Shown here piece after piece: positions 967-6,740 of a DNA stretch of 26,934 bases (its first letter is position 1; every line of letters begins with the position of its first letter). The stretch comes from Acidimicrobiaceae bacterium (GTDB taxonomy: Bacteria > Actinomycetota > Acidimicrobiia > Acidimicrobiales > Ilumatobacteraceae), in assembly GCA_947487095.1 (NCBI GenBank), contig CANKVI010000002.1, positions 1 to 26,934 of the forward strand, given 5' to 3'. A program made the position numbers and the translations under genes. Below the pieces are notes generated by a model that made no database searches, was not told the DNA's origin, and worked only from the letters and a program-made list of their open reading frames with translations.

Positions 967-1070
967 AAGCGAGACTGTTGCATTCATCCGAGATCGTGCA
1001 TACTCGTAAGTGCAATGCGCTGGTACACCATGGGAGTACTCTGACTAAGACAGCACTTAGAGGAGTGAGA

Positions 1071-2225
1071 GTGGCAAAACGGGCGGAAAAAAGCACAAAG
1101 AGGGCGGTAAGCCTGCCTGCACGGAAATCATCCTCGCAGATGGAAACGCCTGTCGCCGACGGCAAAAACGCCAACCTTGGTGCAGCGCGACTTTCCAAAA
1201 ATGGTGAGTTCTACACACAGTGGGTGGACATTGAACGTGAGATGAACGCATATCTGGAGTATGAATCGGACTTATTCCGTGACAAGGTTGTGTTGCTTCC
1301 GTGCGACGACCCAGAGTGGAGCAACTTTGCAAAGTTTTTTGCGCTCCACTTCATGGATTACGGCATCAAAAAACTCATTGCAACCTCATACGCAGCAAAT
1401 AGCAAGCCATTGGAGATCCCATATCAGCCAACTTTGTTCGAAAGTGAGGCACCACAGTTTGACGCTGAAAAAACCCGCTCGAGAGGTAAAAAGTTTGTTT
1501 TAGAAGCTAAGGATATAAACGAAGACGGGGCCGTGAACATTGAGGACTTGCAGTGGGAGTATCTCGAGGGTGATGGGGATTTTCGTAGCGATGAAATCAC
1601 TGCGCTTCGGGACCAGGCTGACATTGTTGTCACAAACCCCCCGTTTAGTTTGATGCGCGAGTTTTTTGCATGGCTTGTTGCCGGCAAGGTAAAATTTTCT
1701 GTTATCGGCCCGCAAAGTGCCCTCACCTACAAAGACGTTTTTTCCCTTGTGCGGGATGGCAAGCTCTGGATTGGCAAGGGCTTTTCTAGAGGTGACGCAT
1801 ATTTTCGAATTCCAGAGTCCGCAAAGACCAACTACGCGGCGGGTGTGTACGACGCAAAAACACAACTGGTTCACTTTCGTAACCTCACCTGGTTTACAAA
1901 TATTGAACATGGTCGACGTCATGAACCCTTAAAGCTCATGACTACAGCAGACAACCTTAAGCACAGCAGACACAAACAGGTAAGGGAAATCGGCTATCAA
2001 ACGTACGACAACTACGATGCGATTGAAGTTCCGTTCACGGCTGCAATACCTTCAGACTACGACGGCGTGATGGGTGTCCCCATATCGTTTCTCGAAAAGC
2101 ACAATCCCGATCAGTTTGAAATTGTAGGAAATGAATACAGCCTCAACCTCAGCAAAGGTCGAGCATACGTACAAGGCAAAAGAAAGTTTGCTCGAATTTT
2201 TATTCGCCGGAAAGGTACTTCTTGA
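1071..2225 (+). CDS. EcoRI-family adenine-specific DNA methyltransferase (384 aa)
   Basis: Transfers a methyl group from S-adenosylmethionine to adenine in DNA. It matches the EcoRI methylase family (PF13651 type): the region [16 protein letters not shown] (about residues 80-95) followed by [10 protein letters not shown], then GDFRSDEI, then the catalytic motif IV NPPF at residues 189-192 inside [15 protein letters not shown], and the [11 protein letters not shown] block about 30 residues later. I chose GTG 1071 because AGGAG lies at 1061-1065; the frame is open back to 723 but that part overlaps the DUF2958 gene. The length is in the range for the family. The stop codon overlaps the TTG start of the next gene (2222-2225), which suggests translational coupling with the DUF262-HNH gene. 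Actual target sequence cannot be read from the protein. Confidence 0.92.
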
Positions 2226-3385
2226 AAGCAATACTTCACCACTACACCGTTGAACAGATCCTTGAAGGATTCGTATTCAACGAACTCGAAGGCAAAGGAC
2301 TATTCGGACTCGCCGGAAAACTCGTCATCCAGCCCGAATACCAGCGTCACTACATTTACGGCGACGGCAAACGCGACGTCGACGTCATCAGTTCACTACT
2401 CAAGAGTTATCCGCTCGGCTTGATCTACTTCAATGTAAACGGCGACTCACTAGAGGTTCTCGATGGGCAGCAGCGCATCACAAGCGTCGGCCGATTCGTG
2501 ACCGGAAAGTTCGCGATCCAAGTCGACGGAAATGAGCAAACATTCGGGTCCTTGCCAAAAGATGCCAAAGATCTGATACTCGCTAGTGACCTACTTGTCT
2601 ACGAGTGCGAAGGTACAGAGTCCGAGATCAAGGAGTGGTTTCGCACGATCAACATTGCGGGGATGCCGCTCAAACAACAAGAACTTCTCAACGCGATCTA
2701 CTCTGGTTCGTTCGTTACAGCGGCAAAGGCTGAGTTCTCGAACTCAAACAACGCGAACATGCAGAAGTGGTCGTCGTACGTCAAAGGCGACCCAAAACGC
2801 CAAGAAGTTCTCGAAGTCGCGCTTGAGTGGGTTGCCGCGTCGCAAGGCGAAACGATCGACTCTTATTTGGCCTCCCACAGGTACGACACCAAGATCGACG
2901 GTTTGAAGAAGTATTTCACTTCCGTGATCGACTGGATTGACAGTGTGTTCACTGTTCCTCACAAGGAGATGCGTGGTCTGGAGTGGGGTCGGCTTTACGA
3001 GGAATATCACAAGACTGCTTACAACGGAGCAAAGCTCAACACGGAAGTCACCGAGCTACTCGCCGATGAGGCAGTGACCAGCCCCCGTGGAGTGTTTGAG
3101 TATTTGCTAAGCGGAAAGAAGAAGACCGAGCTACTCGCCGTTCGATTCTTCGACGATAAAACGAAGAAGGCTGCCTTCAACCGACAGACAAAAGATTCGG
3201 AGAAAACAGGAAAATCGAACTGTTCCGTATGCGCGAGTGTCAAGAACGCGAATCAGTCACGCGTCTACAAACTCTCAGAGATGGAAGCCGATCATGTGAC
3301 CGCCTGGTCGAAAGGTGGTCAGTCAGGAATCGACAATTGTGAGATGCTCTGCGAAACACACAACAGGGCGAAAGGTAACCGCTAA
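2222..3385 (+). CDS. DUF262-HNH endonuclease-like protein (387 aa)
   Basis: N-terminal DUF262 domain (about residues 1-230) with the family's DGQQR motif at residues 81-85; in GmrSD- and SspE-type defence proteins this domain is linked to nucleotide binding or hydrolysis and to sensing DNA modification. The C-terminus is an HNH nuclease: C334-x2-C337, D357-H358 (EADHVTAW), and C377-x2-H380-N381 (CETHNRAK), i.e. a zinc-stabilised beta-beta-alpha-metal fold, here close to a classical HNH rather than DUF1524. It starts with TTG inside the stop of the methylase gene (TTGA overlap), so the two are very likely co-translated. Inference: the nuclease partner of the adenine methylase, cutting DNA depending on methylation. 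It is much shorter than SspE-type fusions. The 3' end overlaps the convergent winged-helix gene by 4 bases. Confidence 0.88.
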
Positions 3386-4289: not shown

Positions 4290-5465
4290 TTATTCAACCC
4301 AGCCACTTGCGGCGCTGACGTCGTGAATATACGTGCGCATCGTCGTTTCAAGGTGCTTGTGTCCCATCCAGGTCTGGACAGCCGGGTAGGACTGGCCAAG
4401 TCCGCCGTCATCTCGTGATGCTGTCGAGTATGAGCCGTAGTGGTGTCGGAGGTAGTGCTGTGTCCATCTCCAGTCGACAGCCTCGCGGGCTTTATCGAGT
4501 CGTTTTGCCCAAGCGTCAGCCCATAGAGAAGCACTTCCGATTCGCGGAATCAACAGTCCATCTTCGCCTGCACGATCTACGAGAAACTTTAAGTCCTTTT
4601 GAATCTTTGTCCATGCGCGCACTCGGCGTGCCATCTTGTACTTAGGTGGACGAGTCGCCATTGACACTCCTACTTCCCATGGGATGTAGCGGTCAAGTTG
4701 CTTATCAACTTTGATGGTTCCATCAGATAGTGAAACGTCACTCGTGGTGAGAGCGAGAAGTTCGCATTGTCGTAAACCGCAACCGGCATTCACGCGTACC
4801 GCCGCAGCAAACTGTTTTGCAAGTATCTTGTCACCGGTCTCATTGAGAATGACATCGTGAAACGAGTTCGCAAGGTTTAGAACTTCTTGCCACGTTGGAA
4901 CGTCGCGCATGCCGATGTTTTCCTCTGGCGTGTTGTTTGATGCTGCGAGACCACGCCCGCGTTTGATTGTGGCTCGCACTTTGGACAGTGGTCCAAATGC
5001 ATCTTCTGGTAGCCACAGACGTTCCTCTGCCCATTTCGCAATAGAGGTAAGTGTCTGAACTTCGCTATCGAGTGATGCGGAACCATTTCCACTTGCGACG
5101 GCTGCATCGATGACTGCGGTCAACGTACTTCGGTCTGTATCGATGAGCCGAATATTTCCGATTACTACAAGAAGACGACGGTTGATGGCTGACATTCGCG
5201 CTCGGTAAGTGCCCTCCTCGATGACGTTGACGTGGTGGCGTTCCCATTGAGCGAAGAGAGTCGTCCAGGTTGCATCAATGTCGATCTTGAGCTTTGCCCC
5301 AATCTCAACTTCGGCGACAATTTCTTCCGCCCTCTTCATCGCCTCAGTAAAAGTCTTGCCACCTCGTAGCTGTCTACGGGGGTTTCCGTTGCCGACAACT
5401 TTGTTCGGGTAGTAGGAGATTCGTCCGTCGTGGGAGACGCGTATCCACTTTGGAAGTTCGGTCAT
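4290..5465 (-). CDS. Tyrosine recombinase / integrase (391 aa)
   Basis: Catalyses site-specific integration and excision of the island. The C-terminal catalytic domain shows the family residues in order: R232 in GCGLRQCELLAL, H337-x2-R340 in HYLRHHYG, H369 in TWMGHKHLE, and the nucleophile Y379 in MRTYIHDV; a lysine in the beta-hairpin (PPKYKMARR region) is the likely Lys. The N-terminal part (about 60-160) is the core-binding, SAM-like domain. The length is standard for actinobacterial phage/ICE integrases. Its ATG overlaps the stop of the excisionase-like gene by 4 bases (5462-5465), so both are one transcript. All catalytic residues are present, so it is probably functional. Confidence 0.95.
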   Translation of the reverse strand: MTELPKWIRVSHDGRISYYPNKVVGNGNPRRQLRGGKTFTEAMKRAEEIVAEVEIGAKLKIDIDATWTTLFAQWERHHVNVIEEGTYRARMSAINRRLLVVIGNIRLIDTDRSTLTAVIDAAVASGNGSASLDSEVQTLTSIAKWAEERLWLPEDAFGPLSKVRATIKRGRGLAASNNTPEENIGMRDVPTWQEVLNLANSFHDVILNETGDKILAKQFAAAVRVNAGCGLRQCELLALTTSDVSLSDGTIKVDKQLDRYIPWEVGVSMATRPPKYKMARRVRAWTKIQKDLKFLVDRAGEDGLLIPRIGSASLWADAWAKRLDKAREAVDWRWTQHYLRHHYGSYSTASRDDGGLGQSYPAVQTWMGHKHLETTMRTYIHDVSAASGWVE

Positions 5466-5758
5466 GATGCGACTCCTGCGTAACGCATCTTTGAAGAGCG
5501 TGGGATTCGCACGACTTTCTGTGTAGAACTTTCGTGCTTGAGAGCTCCTTCTGCTCCGTGATCTGAGCTGACCGCGAATGCGACGACAGCGCTTGCTGTC
5601 CAGCGATGCTTGTCGCCGCGGATAGGTCGTGGGAATGTGGCATCTCGGACGATGCGATTCGCCTGACGGATGCTGCGTTGGTAGAAACCGGCGATGTCAC
5701 GAATCGACCAGATTTCGGGGATTGTCTCGGGTGCTGTGGAGGTATGTGTTGCTGTCAT
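5462..5758 (-). CDS. Excisionase-like / AlpA-type helix-turn-helix protein (98 aa)
   Basis: A small DNA-binding protein: residues about 16-62 (IWSIRDIAGFYQRSIRQANR, then FPRPIRGDKHRWTASAVVAF) follow the MerR/AlpA-like excisionase pattern of a helix-turn-helix, a short wing with a Pro-rich turn and an R/W-containing strand. The last 30 residues are basic and unstructured. It lies directly before and overlaps the integrase gene, the usual order for recombination directionality factors. No clear Shine-Dalgarno precedes ATG 5758. Likely role: control of excision and possibly of the integrase promoter. Specific family assignment is inferred. Confidence 0.8.
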   Translation of the reverse strand: MTATHTSTAPETIPEIWSIRDIAGFYQRSIRQANRIVRDATFPRPIRGDKHRWTASAVVAFAVSSDHGAEGALKHESSTQKVVRIPRSSKMRYAGVAS

Positions 5759-5785
5759 AGATCAGACCGTGAAGAGCCTGGCCAT

Positions 5786-5802
5786 CACGGCATACAGCCG
5801 TG
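5786..5802. repeat. Inverted repeat upstream of the excisionase-like gene
   Basis: CACGGC-ATACA-GCCGTG, a perfect 6-bp stem with a 5-base loop, 28 bases before the ATG at 5758. It is a plausible operator or small leader hairpin for the xis-int transcript. A second longer-range pair, AGACCGT (5764-5770) with ACGGTCT (5860-5866), brackets the same intergenic stretch. Confidence 0.4.
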
Positions 5803-5831
5803 TGACGCACAAACTGGCTTATTCATTGGGT

Positions 5832-5885
5832 TTCACAGCATTCACAGAGACTTACTGTGACGGTCTAAATGAAAGAACTGTCACA
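5832..5885 (+). promoter_or_regulatory. Putative promoter-operator of the toxin-antitoxin operon
   Basis: A candidate promoter is TTCACA (5841-5846), 17 bases, TCTAAA (5864-5869). It is covered by repeats: TTCACAG occurs twice 9 bases apart (5832, 5841), TCACAG-agactta-CTGTGA forms a perfect inverted repeat (5842-5860), and TGTGAC (5856-5861) is repeated inverted as GTCACA (5880-5885). Such overlapping palindromes are typical for autoregulated toxin-antitoxin operons or excisionase sites. The promoter itself is a weak call. Confidence 0.4.
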
Positions 5886-5910
5886 CCCATGGGATACCGT
5901 TTGACCAGTT

Positions 5911-6444
5911 ATGAAAGATCAAATTGCCAAACTCGTGGAATCTGTAAGGACGAATCAGATCGGAACATCGAAGGCGTGGCAGGGTGCCAACGTCGTGGTC
6001 ACGAAGAGAGCACCATCGCCATCGGTTGACAACTTCAATCCCGATCCGCGATTTGTTGAAACAAGATTTGTCGGAGAGCTGAGTTGGCTGTTTGAGCAAC
6101 TCAGAGATGTCTTCATGAAGTCCGATGGGTACGGGCTCTGGAAAGAGGAGTTTTTCGGACGTTTGGGAAATATCGCACGCAAGTTTCAGTCTGTATGTCC
6201 AGAGTGTTCGGTTGTTGGACTTTTGGAGACAGTGGCCGAGGAAGCCATGACGATGGCAGACGAGATAGAAAAGTCGGGTGGTCTTGAATCGTTGATGGTC
6301 ACAACTGGAAACATGATTCTTGATGACATCACACTCGCGTCCGACAGGAACCGGTATCTCTCTCAGGAGCGAGTTCGAGAGCGACTTCTTATGTATGTTG
6401 GCGAAGACGCGCTTGACGATGACGAATTAGGCAATACGAAATGA
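5911..6444 (+). CDS. Putative antitoxin partner of RelE-like toxin (177 aa), family unrecognised
   Basis: I do not recognise the fold. The N-terminus is short and polar (MKDQIAKLVESVRTNQIGTS), the middle (about 50-95) is aromatic and helical (SWLFEQLRDVFMKSDGYGLW), with a CPEC motif near residue 94, and the C-terminus is acidic (DALDDDELGNTK), which could neutralise the basic toxin surface. Its position as first gene, with a 4-base ATGA overlap to the toxin gene, is that of an antitoxin. At 177 residues it is about twice the length of common RelB-type antitoxins, and no standard DNA-binding motif is evident. Start ATG 5911 has no strong Shine-Dalgarno. The role is inferred from context only. 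Confidence 0.7.
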   Translation: MKDQIAKLVESVRTNQIGTSKAWQGANVVVTKRAPSPSVDNFNPDPRFVETRFVGELSWLFEQLRDVFMKSDGYGLWKEEFFGRLGNIARKFQSVCPECSVVGLLETVAEEAMTMADEIEKSGGLESLMVTTGNMILDDITLASDRNRYLSQERVRERLLMYVGEDALDDDELGNTK

Positions 6445-6740
6445 GGCGTCTGATGCTTGACGTTGATGAGGATTGCGATTCCTACATTGAAAAATTGGTC
6501 CCTAAACAACGGTCGCAAGTCTGGGGAAAGATTGCCGATCTGCGGCTTGATCCGAGGCCGAATGACTCCGAGCATATGACGGGATTCAAACCGTGTTTTC
6601 GAGTTACGTGCGGTGAACATCGGATCATCTACATGGTCGCACGCGATCACGTCAAAATATTTCTGGTCGGTCATCGCGGAGATGATGCGGTTTACAAAGC
6701 ATTCGAACGCAAGTATCGAAACCTGTCATTTGCGGCCTAA
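6441..6740 (+). CDS. RelE/ParE-family toxin (99 aa)
   Basis: A small basic protein with the RelE/ParE pattern: an N-terminal helical hairpin (EKLVPKQRSQVWGKIADLRL), then RPNDSEHMTG, then the beta-sheet core PCFRVTCGEHRIIYMVARDH, and the C-terminal VGHRGDDAVYKAFERKY. The paired FRVTCGEHRIIY and VGHR...VYK strings are typical of RelE-type ribosome-dependent mRNA interferases or ParE-like toxins. The length is standard. It overlaps the preceding gene by 4 bases, so expression is coupled to it. Such pairs commonly stabilise integrated elements, which fits its place between the integrase module and the island edge. Confidence 0.85.
   Translation: MRRLMLDVDEDCDSYIEKLVPKQRSQVWGKIADLRLDPRPNDSEHMTGFKPCFRVTCGEHRIIYMVARDHVKIFLVGHRGDDAVYKAFERKYRNLSFAA

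What the first reader, a model, noticed from the sequence alone, without database searches (positions are those of the whole stretch)
1071..3385. EcoRI-type adenine methylase translationally coupled to a DUF262-HNH nuclease: candidate non-classical restriction/defence pair
The methylase is a clear EcoRI-family enzyme, but its partner is not an EcoRI-like endonuclease. It is a DUF262 protein with DGQQR (81-85) fused to a compact HNH domain (C334, C337, D357-H358, C377, H380). The stop and start overlap (TTGA, 2222-2225). DUF262 proteins in GmrSD, BrxU and SspE use nucleotide hydrolysis and sense DNA modification. Here the pair could be a two-gene system in which the methylase marks self DNA and a nucleotide-dependent HNH nuclease cuts DNA lacking (or carrying a different) mark. 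This combination is not one of the standard type II designs.
Basis: partly seen in the sequence, partly recalled or inferred. Interest (0 to 1): 0.72.

Follow-up and report, generated by a model that had tools for sequence, protein, structure and literature searches.

The report
Restriction pair with swappable targeting
This is a widespread two-gene bacterial defence in which the DNA-marking enzyme, not the DNA-cutting enzyme, appears to carry the sequence address in two exchangeable pieces, so the cutter would have to follow whatever address its partner currently wears.

Summary
Confirmed: an EcoRI-family adenine methylase (M, 1071-2225) overlaps a DUF262-HNH protein (R, 2222-3385). M accompanies R in 167 of 168 testable loci across phyla, plasmids and phages. 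PADLOC's type II profiles already match both, so databases hold the pair.

What looks new is how specificity is organised. M has two hypervariable, recombining segments, read here as target recognition domains (TRDs). R tracks the M core (r=0.69) but not the TRDs (partial r about 0). M's TRDs can differ while R stays 99.7-100% identical. In Phocaeicola massiliensis an inversion of about 390 bp swaps TRD2, beside a recombinase whose relatives adjoin type I hsdS genes. Control: Ms paired with EcoRI nuclease conserve both segments; DUF262-paired Ms at equal core identity do not.

Best reading: R does not read DNA sequence; M supplies specificity (type I/III-like logic, DUF262-HNH effector). This predicts asymmetric, one-strand methylation. 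M.BanLI, an M.EcoRI homologue beside a 43.5-kDa R, methylates only RTC(6mA)GG (PMC3990576); whether R.BanLI is DUF262-HNH is unverified. M-R contact and NTP use are inferred. The window itself shows no inverted cassette.

The parts
1061..1065 (+). ribosome-binding site (AGGAG) of M
   Evidence: sequence
1071..2225 (+). M: EcoRI-family adenine-specific methyltransferase, 384 aa, GTG start
1635..1646 (+). NPPF motif IV of M (residues 189-192); motif name recalled
   Evidence: N189, P191, F192 invariant and P190 nearly invariant in 61 sequences
1752..1886 (+). hypervariable segment read as TRD1 (M residues about 228-272); boundaries inferred
2130..2222 (+). hypervariable C-terminal segment read as TRD2 (M residues 354-384); boundaries inferred
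2222..3385 (+). R: DUF262(GmrSD_N)-HNH nuclease, 387 aa, 43.5 kDa, TTG start overlapping the M stop
2324..2701 (+). DUF262 / GmrSD_N domain of R (Pfam range, residues 35-160)
2462..2476 (+). DGQQR motif of R (residues 81-85)
   Evidence: invariant in 69 sequences
3221..3382 (+). HNH domain of R with conserved Cys/His positions (residues 334-387)
4290..5465 (-). tyrosine integrase near the pair, suggesting a mobile-element end (context, not part of the system)
   Evidence: PF00589 34.3 bits

Best explanation
A two-gene restriction-modification system in which M is both the protective adenine methylase and the only sequence reader. M reads its site with two modular segments (TRD1 about 228-272, TRD2 354-end) that evolve by exchange and, in some relatives (Bacteroidota and viral contigs), by site-specific inversion. 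R is a DUF262 (ParB/Srx-fold) plus HNH nuclease without sequence specificity of its own; it most likely acts on DNA where M, through its conserved core, finds an unmethylated target, with nucleotide turnover in DUF262 as the switch. Because TRD1 and TRD2 types combine freely, most sites should be asymmetric and methylated on one strand only, so the nuclease must, as in type III systems, tolerate newly replicated half-unmarked DNA. Shown by calculation: pairing, modularity, inversion, R not co-varying with the variable segments. Inferred: that the segments are TRDs in the biochemical sense, that R contacts M, NTP use, defence.
For: Pairing 167 of 168. Segment combinatorics in 285 distinct Ms: 10 multi-member TRD1 types, each seen with 4 to 21 TRD2 types. 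144 M/R pairs: R vs M core r=0.694, R vs TRD1/TRD2 given core -0.006/0.033; no 20-aa window of R exceeds 0.061. R identical over 393 positions while M has another C-terminus (L003/L025); R 99.7% with both segments different (L031/L034, L098/L100). DNA inversion, 391 aligned columns at 98.5% identity between colinear flanks. A tyrosine recombinase downstream of R (61% identity or more) is present in 7 of 176 R-bait loci, all 7 with inverted silent cassettes; of its about 48% relatives, six were read, five lie beside Methylase_S genes. Control: 11 Ms paired with EcoRI nuclease have mean TRD1/TRD2 identity of 0.68-0.90/0.78-0.87 per core bin where DUF262-paired Ms have 0.26-0.33/0.11-0.18. M.BanLI, an M.EcoRI homologue beside a 43.5-kDa R, methylates one strand of asymmetric RTCAGG (PMC3990576, passages); window R computes to 43.5 kDa, three EcoRI nucleases to about 31 kDa. 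A clean M-R fusion protein P0269.
Against: No experiment here shows M-R contact, cleavage or NTP use. TRD is inferred from variability and position. R.BanLI was not verified as DUF262-HNH, and its restriction was weak (EOP about 0.1; 1.8-fold in transformation). No inverted cassette was found in the window itself. In the window's nearest clade TRD1 varies little; TRD2 is replaced in 10 of 13 contig-matched pairs but kept in 3, including the two with R at 94-95%. Three locus pairs with identical R also have identical M, and L003/L098 and L111/L117 keep TRD2 with similar R. Two loci with short inverted TRD2-like stretches, L149 and L152, lack the recombinase. An R without M exists (L088), and Ms without R are common in viral contigs (25 of 75 testable). 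A third stretch of M, 106-150, is also moderately variable and was not explained. Of 13 candidate fusions only one full and one partial look clean; the others show partial domains, or garbled or deleted junctions (seven sequences read).
Confidence: 0.66

Rival explanations
1. Mark-sensing effector: R never touches M. Like SspE with phosphorothioate, its DUF262 domain senses m6A in any sequence context as a licence or trigger, so M specificity can drift freely.
For: SspE-like DUF262 fold; published SspE/BrxU behaviour as summarised in PMC10952713 (passages); R identity is independent of the variable segments.
Against: R should then work with any m6A methylase, yet its neighbour is a PF13651 M in 167 of 168 testable loci and R co-varies with the M core, though common descent alone could give that; a clean M-R fusion exists. 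None of this is decisive.
Confidence: 0.2
2. Ordinary type II R-M: R reads the same site as M, and the variable segments of M are not specificity determinants or change together with R.
For: PADLOC profiles and REBASE-style naming as type II (PMC5608340).
Against: R is 100% identical while the M segment is swapped by inversion; EcoRI-nuclease-paired Ms conserve these same segments; no R window follows them.
Confidence: 0.07
3. R is not a DNA restriction effector at all; the linkage serves another role such as plasmid addiction or regulation, or R is a degenerate passenger.
For: Weak restriction by BanLI (PMC3990576, if BanLI is a member); occurrence on plasmids (668 records with a match, 43 covering at least 80% of R).
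Against: DGQQR and most HNH residues are invariant in 69 sequences, so R is under selection; BanLI R+M lowered P1vir plaquing about tenfold in E. coli (PMC3990576).
Confidence: 0.07

Closest known systems
EcoRI R-M system (type IIP; PF13651 + PF02963)
   Same: M is the same methylase family; an EcoRI-like TRD2 also occurs as an inverted stretch behind M in viral contig L152
   Different: EcoRI nuclease is a 31-kDa enzyme that reads GAATTC itself (recalled) and goes with conserved segments; here R is DUF262-HNH and the segments are free
BanLI of Bifidobacterium animalis subsp. lactis (PMC3990576)
   Same: M.EcoRI homologue, single M gene, adjacent 43.5-kDa R, asymmetric one-strand m6A, modest phage restriction
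   Different: Published as an incomplete type IIS system; whether R.BanLI is DUF262-HNH could not be checked here
Type III and type I R-M systems with TRD exchange or hsdS inversion (e.g. PMC3983042, passages)
   Same: Specificity carried by the modification side; TRDs swap by recombination or inversion while R stays
   Different: No helicase R and no separate S subunit; effector is DUF262-HNH
GmrSD, BrxU, SspE (DUF262 effectors)
   Different: HNH of PF01844 instead of DUF1524; regular partner methylase of the EcoRI family; no sign of a type IV role

Membership tests
Type II R-M (EcoRI type) | Methylase of the PF13651 family | tested here: met
   369 bits
Type II R-M (EcoRI type) | Endonuclease reads the same sequence on its own | tested here: inconclusive
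   No biochemistry, but comparative evidence is against it: R identical with a swapped TRD2, no co-variation, opposite pattern in EcoRI-paired Ms
Type II R-M (EcoRI type) | EcoRI-type nuclease partner (PF02963) | tested here: not met
   R hits PF03235 and PF01844, and HNH_5 below its cut-off; no PF02963
GmrSD/BrxU type IV | DUF262 domain with DGQQR | tested here: met
GmrSD/BrxU type IV | DUF1524 (PF07510) nuclease domain | tested here: not met
   Pfam gives PF01844 HNH and no PF07510 up to E 0.1
GmrSD/BrxU type IV | Cleaves modified DNA | not testable with these tools
   needs an assay
Ssp (SspABCD-SspE) | Phosphorothioation genes beside the effector | tested here: not met
   R is next to a PF13651 methylase; none of the 20 window ORFs given to Pfam, which include the nearest neighbours, hits a family I know as a phosphorothioation gene; not all window ORFs were scanned
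Type III R-M | Mod carries specificity, one-strand asymmetric methylation | tested here: inconclusive
   Modular segments support it; one-strand methylation known only for BanLI, membership unverified
Type III R-M | Res with helicase motor | tested here: not met
   No helicase domain in R
Phase-variable (inverting) R-M | Recombinase and inverted silent specificity cassettes | tested here: not met
   Not met in the window (no extra TRD2 copy at tblastn E 1e-3); met in 7 relatives: L003, L025 (Phocaeicola), L026 (Alloprevotella) and viral contigs L098, L100, L101, L137

The most novel reading that the evidence does not exclude
A distinct class of restriction-modification system, neither type I, II, III nor IV: an EcoRI-fold methylase acts as a stand-alone, two-TRD specificity subunit that methylates one strand of asymmetric sites and directs a separate, sequence-blind DUF262-HNH nuclease through nucleotide-gated contact; in some Bacteroidales it carries an hsdS-style invertase, making it a phase-variable epigenetic switch. 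EcoRI itself could then be a derived case in which an M of this family was joined by a nuclease that reads the site alone.
Probability: 0.45. Interest if true: 0.87.

Novelty: new variant of a known kind. Interest (0 to 1): 0.76.

Why it matters
It could explain why an EcoRI-like pair in Prevotella intermedia showed no GAATTC methylation and was called inactive (PMC5608340), and why BanLI looked like an incomplete type IIS system (PMC3990576), if these two are members. It warns against predicting GAATTC for PF13651 methylases, gives DUF262 a possible non-type-IV role, and adds a candidate phase-variable methylome switch in gut Bacteroidales that can be tested directly.

Tried and rejected
Classical type II reading: disfavoured by identical R with a swapped segment and by the EcoRI-paired control. 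Searching the window's own genome: none held. Sequence search of PDB with R: nothing at E 1; with M: Ika8 and Ika4 chains at 4.8e-6 and 0.078, not used. Foldseek alone gave no match at E 0.001 for R or M, so fold statements rest on VIA-align Z and are moderate. The fusion search gave mostly artefact-like proteins. A Bifidobacterium genome to check R.BanLI was sought with a 16S probe sequence recalled from memory: 0 of 396 Actinomycetota genomes. Ten literature searches of a CC-licensed PMC library listed no paper that I recognised as describing DUF262-HNH with an EcoRI-type methylase as M-guided or inverting; I opened passages of twelve papers only, and subscription papers, preprints and REBASE itself were not searchable. 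The Fisher value printed used a 7/0/0/169 table that left out L149 and L152; the plain counts should be used instead. The recombinase could be missed in loci that end soon after R.

Rows dropped: one search sets aside 8 loci cut upstream of R by a contig end. One search keeps 147 of 168 pairs (window included in both) with M and R over 330 aa; one search uses 144, three identical Ms (L128/L129, L104/L105, L012/L114, each with identical R) counted once. Control: 13 loci with an EcoRI-type nuclease were given; 11 gave an M; L305 and L312 gave none (in L312, whose nuclease is 45% identical, the record annotates another DNA methyltransferase upstream). Given-M tally, read by me: of 28 Ms with an open frame of 300 aa or more and downstream DNA held, 24 lie beside DUF262-HNH (R partial or broken in some), 2 beside EcoRI nuclease, 2 beside neither; 3 of the 24 are the centre genomes, chosen for having the pair. 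Set aside: contig-end, fragmentary, degenerate, duplicate and below-cut-off matches.

Full report
What is there. The window codes an EcoRI-family adenine methylase (M, 1071-2225) and, overlapping its stop, a 387-aa DUF262-HNH protein (R, 2222-3385). PF13651, PF03235 and PF01844 all score above their cut-offs. PADLOC type II profiles match both genes over nearly their whole length (M 277 bits, R 310 bits). That such profiles derive from REBASE is recalled, not from a call. The pair lies near a tyrosine integrase (4290-5465) and a ParE-like toxin gene, which suggests mobile-element cargo.

Conserved pairing. I collected R relatives from plasmid and phage records (16 fetched), one genome scan (best 80 of at least 584 relatives) and one viral scan (best 80 of 145). 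M lies upstream of R on the same strand in 16 of 16 records, 75 of 76 testable genome loci and 75 of 76 testable viral loci; in the remaining viral locus, L149, it lies immediately downstream. The one true exception is L088. Sixteen loci break the script's 400-nt rule: fourteen have a gap of 0.4-1.6 kb, often with another ORF in it, while L002 and L015 are artefacts of stop-to-stop frames. M is partial or broken in L007, L011 and L015. Host names include actinobacteria, Bacteroidota, Bacillota, Proteobacteria, Chloroflexota and candidate phyla (titles). Starting instead from PF13651 in 891 genomes drawn from three phyla (centre genomes included), 24 of 28 usable Ms sit beside DUF262-HNH, 2 beside EcoRI nuclease and 2 beside neither (my reading; 3 of the 24 are the centre genomes). 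In viral contigs Ms without R are common (25 of 75 testable).

Two exchangeable segments in M. Column conservation of M is lowest at the N-terminus and at about residues 241-270 and 361-375 (0.28-0.41 majority frequency per block); a third stretch, 106-150, is intermediate (0.43-0.47) and was not explained. In 285 distinct Ms (paired, orphan and context-free ones together) the segments 226-274 and 351-end fall into 10 and 21 multi-member types that combine freely, for example the largest TRD1 type with 21 TRD2 types. Clustering was single-linkage, so types are loose: L098 and L100 share a TRD1 type at 31% identity. In the window's own clade, P0129 has core 92% and TRD2 30%.

R does not follow these segments. 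Over 144 M/R pairs, R identity correlates with the M core at 0.694, but given the core it is uncorrelated with TRD1 (-0.006) and TRD2 (0.033). No R domain or 20-aa window does better than 0.061. Among the 8 pairs with R at 95% or more, 2 share a TRD2 type; three further pairs with identical R and identical M had been removed as duplicates. The sharpest cases are L003/L025 (R 100%, C-terminus replaced) and L031/L034 and L098/L100 (R 99.7%, both segments replaced).

A DNA inversion does it. L003 is a plasmid record and L025 a type-strain genome contig of Phocaeicola massiliensis. They are colinear at 100% (1213 bp) and 99.9% (3316 bp) on either side of a segment of about 390 bp that is inverted at 98.5% identity; it exchanges the M C-terminus for a silent copy lying between M and R. 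Seven regions were searched for repeats: inverted repeats flank such copies in L003, L025, L026, L098, L100 and L137 (arms 16-27 bp, one extending to 42 bp at 76%), and none was found in L036. In five of the six the first arm codes the conserved F-x-I-L-G stretch before the segment; in L026 it lies behind M. A tyrosine recombinase directly downstream of R (61% identity or more) is present in those six and in L101, which lacks M because of a contig end, and in no other of the 176 R-bait loci, some of which end soon after R; L224, from the M-bait scan, lies on the contig of L100. Two more loci, L149 and L152, have short inverted TRD2-like stretches without it; the one in L152 is EcoRI-like. The nearest other relatives of the recombinase, 46-49% identical, occur in 10 of 395 Bacteroidota genomes besides the centre genome. 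I read the surroundings of six of these: five lie among hsdS pieces, confirmed by PF01420 in all five tested; in the sixth, L292, I saw none. So an hsdS-type invertase appears to serve this methylase.

Internal control. Of 13 loci with an EcoRI-type nuclease, 11 have an M of this family beside it (PF02963 confirmed for L184, 466 bits; the others by similarity or record annotation); L305 and L312 gave none. The two segments of these 11 Ms are conserved across Gram-negative, Gram-positive and actinobacterial hosts: in core-identity bins 0.6-0.7, 0.7-0.8 and 0.8-0.9, TRD1 averages 0.68, 0.82, 0.90 and TRD2 0.78, 0.85, 0.87 (17, 23 and 14 pairs; L302 and L303 are identical). DUF262-paired Ms in the same bins have TRD1 0.26, 0.27, 0.33 and TRD2 0.11, 0.14, 0.18 (3616, 2916 and 461 pairs). 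A nuclease known (recalled) to read its own site goes with fixed segments; DUF262-HNH does not. Alignment error lowers the second set somewhat.

How it most likely works. If M alone carries the address, R must be directed by M or by the mark. The regular PF13651 partner, R-core co-variation and a clean M-R fusion (P0269, 717 aa; P0272 partial) favour contact with M, at moderate strength. Free combination of two segments predicts asymmetric sites and one-strand methylation. In passages of PMC3990576, M.BanLI (41.68 kDa), an M.EcoRI homologue, gives single-strand RTC(6mA)GG; its neighbour is a 43.5-kDa R; R+M lower P1vir plaquing about tenfold; the authors proposed a lost second methylase. Window R computes to 43.5 kDa, the median of the 54-sequence R alignment is 43.5, and three EcoRI nucleases are about 31 kDa; M masses in a 50-sequence alignment run from 41.2 to 50.2. 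That R.BanLI is DUF262-HNH is therefore likely but unverified. In PMC5608340 (passages and first part of section 12), a P. intermedia EcoRI-like M with a downstream R (coordinates give 1104 bp) was predicted GAATTC, showed none and was called inactive; a different address is an alternative. In PMC10457243 (passages) a Psychrobacter plasmid M, 40% identical to M.EcoRI, did not protect against EcoRI; its partner arrangement differs and was not checked.

Verdict. Observation confirmed; interpretation partly supported and extended. The pair as such is recorded in databases; the organisation of specificity was not found described in the papers searched. Main gaps: no biochemistry, R.BanLI identity, M-R contact, NTP role, and no inverted cassette in this window.

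Noticed in passing
L003:4127-4975 (also L025, L098, L100): A Bro-N family gene (PF02498 for the L003 copy) sits between M and R in Phocaeicola massiliensis and related viral contigs.
   Followed up: partly
L152:4841-4985 (reverse strand): Inverted EcoRI-like TRD2 stretch behind a viral-contig M, without the L003-type recombinase.
   Followed up: partly
L012 (NC_048834.1): Flavobacterium phage laban6-1 carries the M-R pair close to its tape-measure gene.
   Followed up: no
window 4290-6740: Tyrosine integrase (minus strand) and, further on, an unassigned ORF followed by a ParE-like toxin ORF (plus strand) near the pair, possibly one end of an integrated element; no tRNA found in the window.
   Followed up: partly
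L311 (NZ_CP066854.1): A Rhodococcus plasmid has an EcoRI R-M pair followed by a different, longer DUF262 protein.
   Followed up: no
L312 (NZ_CP044480.1): An EcoRI-type nuclease with a DNA methyltransferase annotated upstream that did not match the M profile.
   Followed up: no
P0269: Natural 717-aa M-R fusion that looks clean, 2 member sequences.
   Followed up: partly
L149:2862-4955: Gene order reversed, R before M, in one viral contig.
   Followed up: no
L036, L038, L063/L064, L096: Different ORFs inserted between M and R; L063 and L064 share the same one.
   Followed up: no
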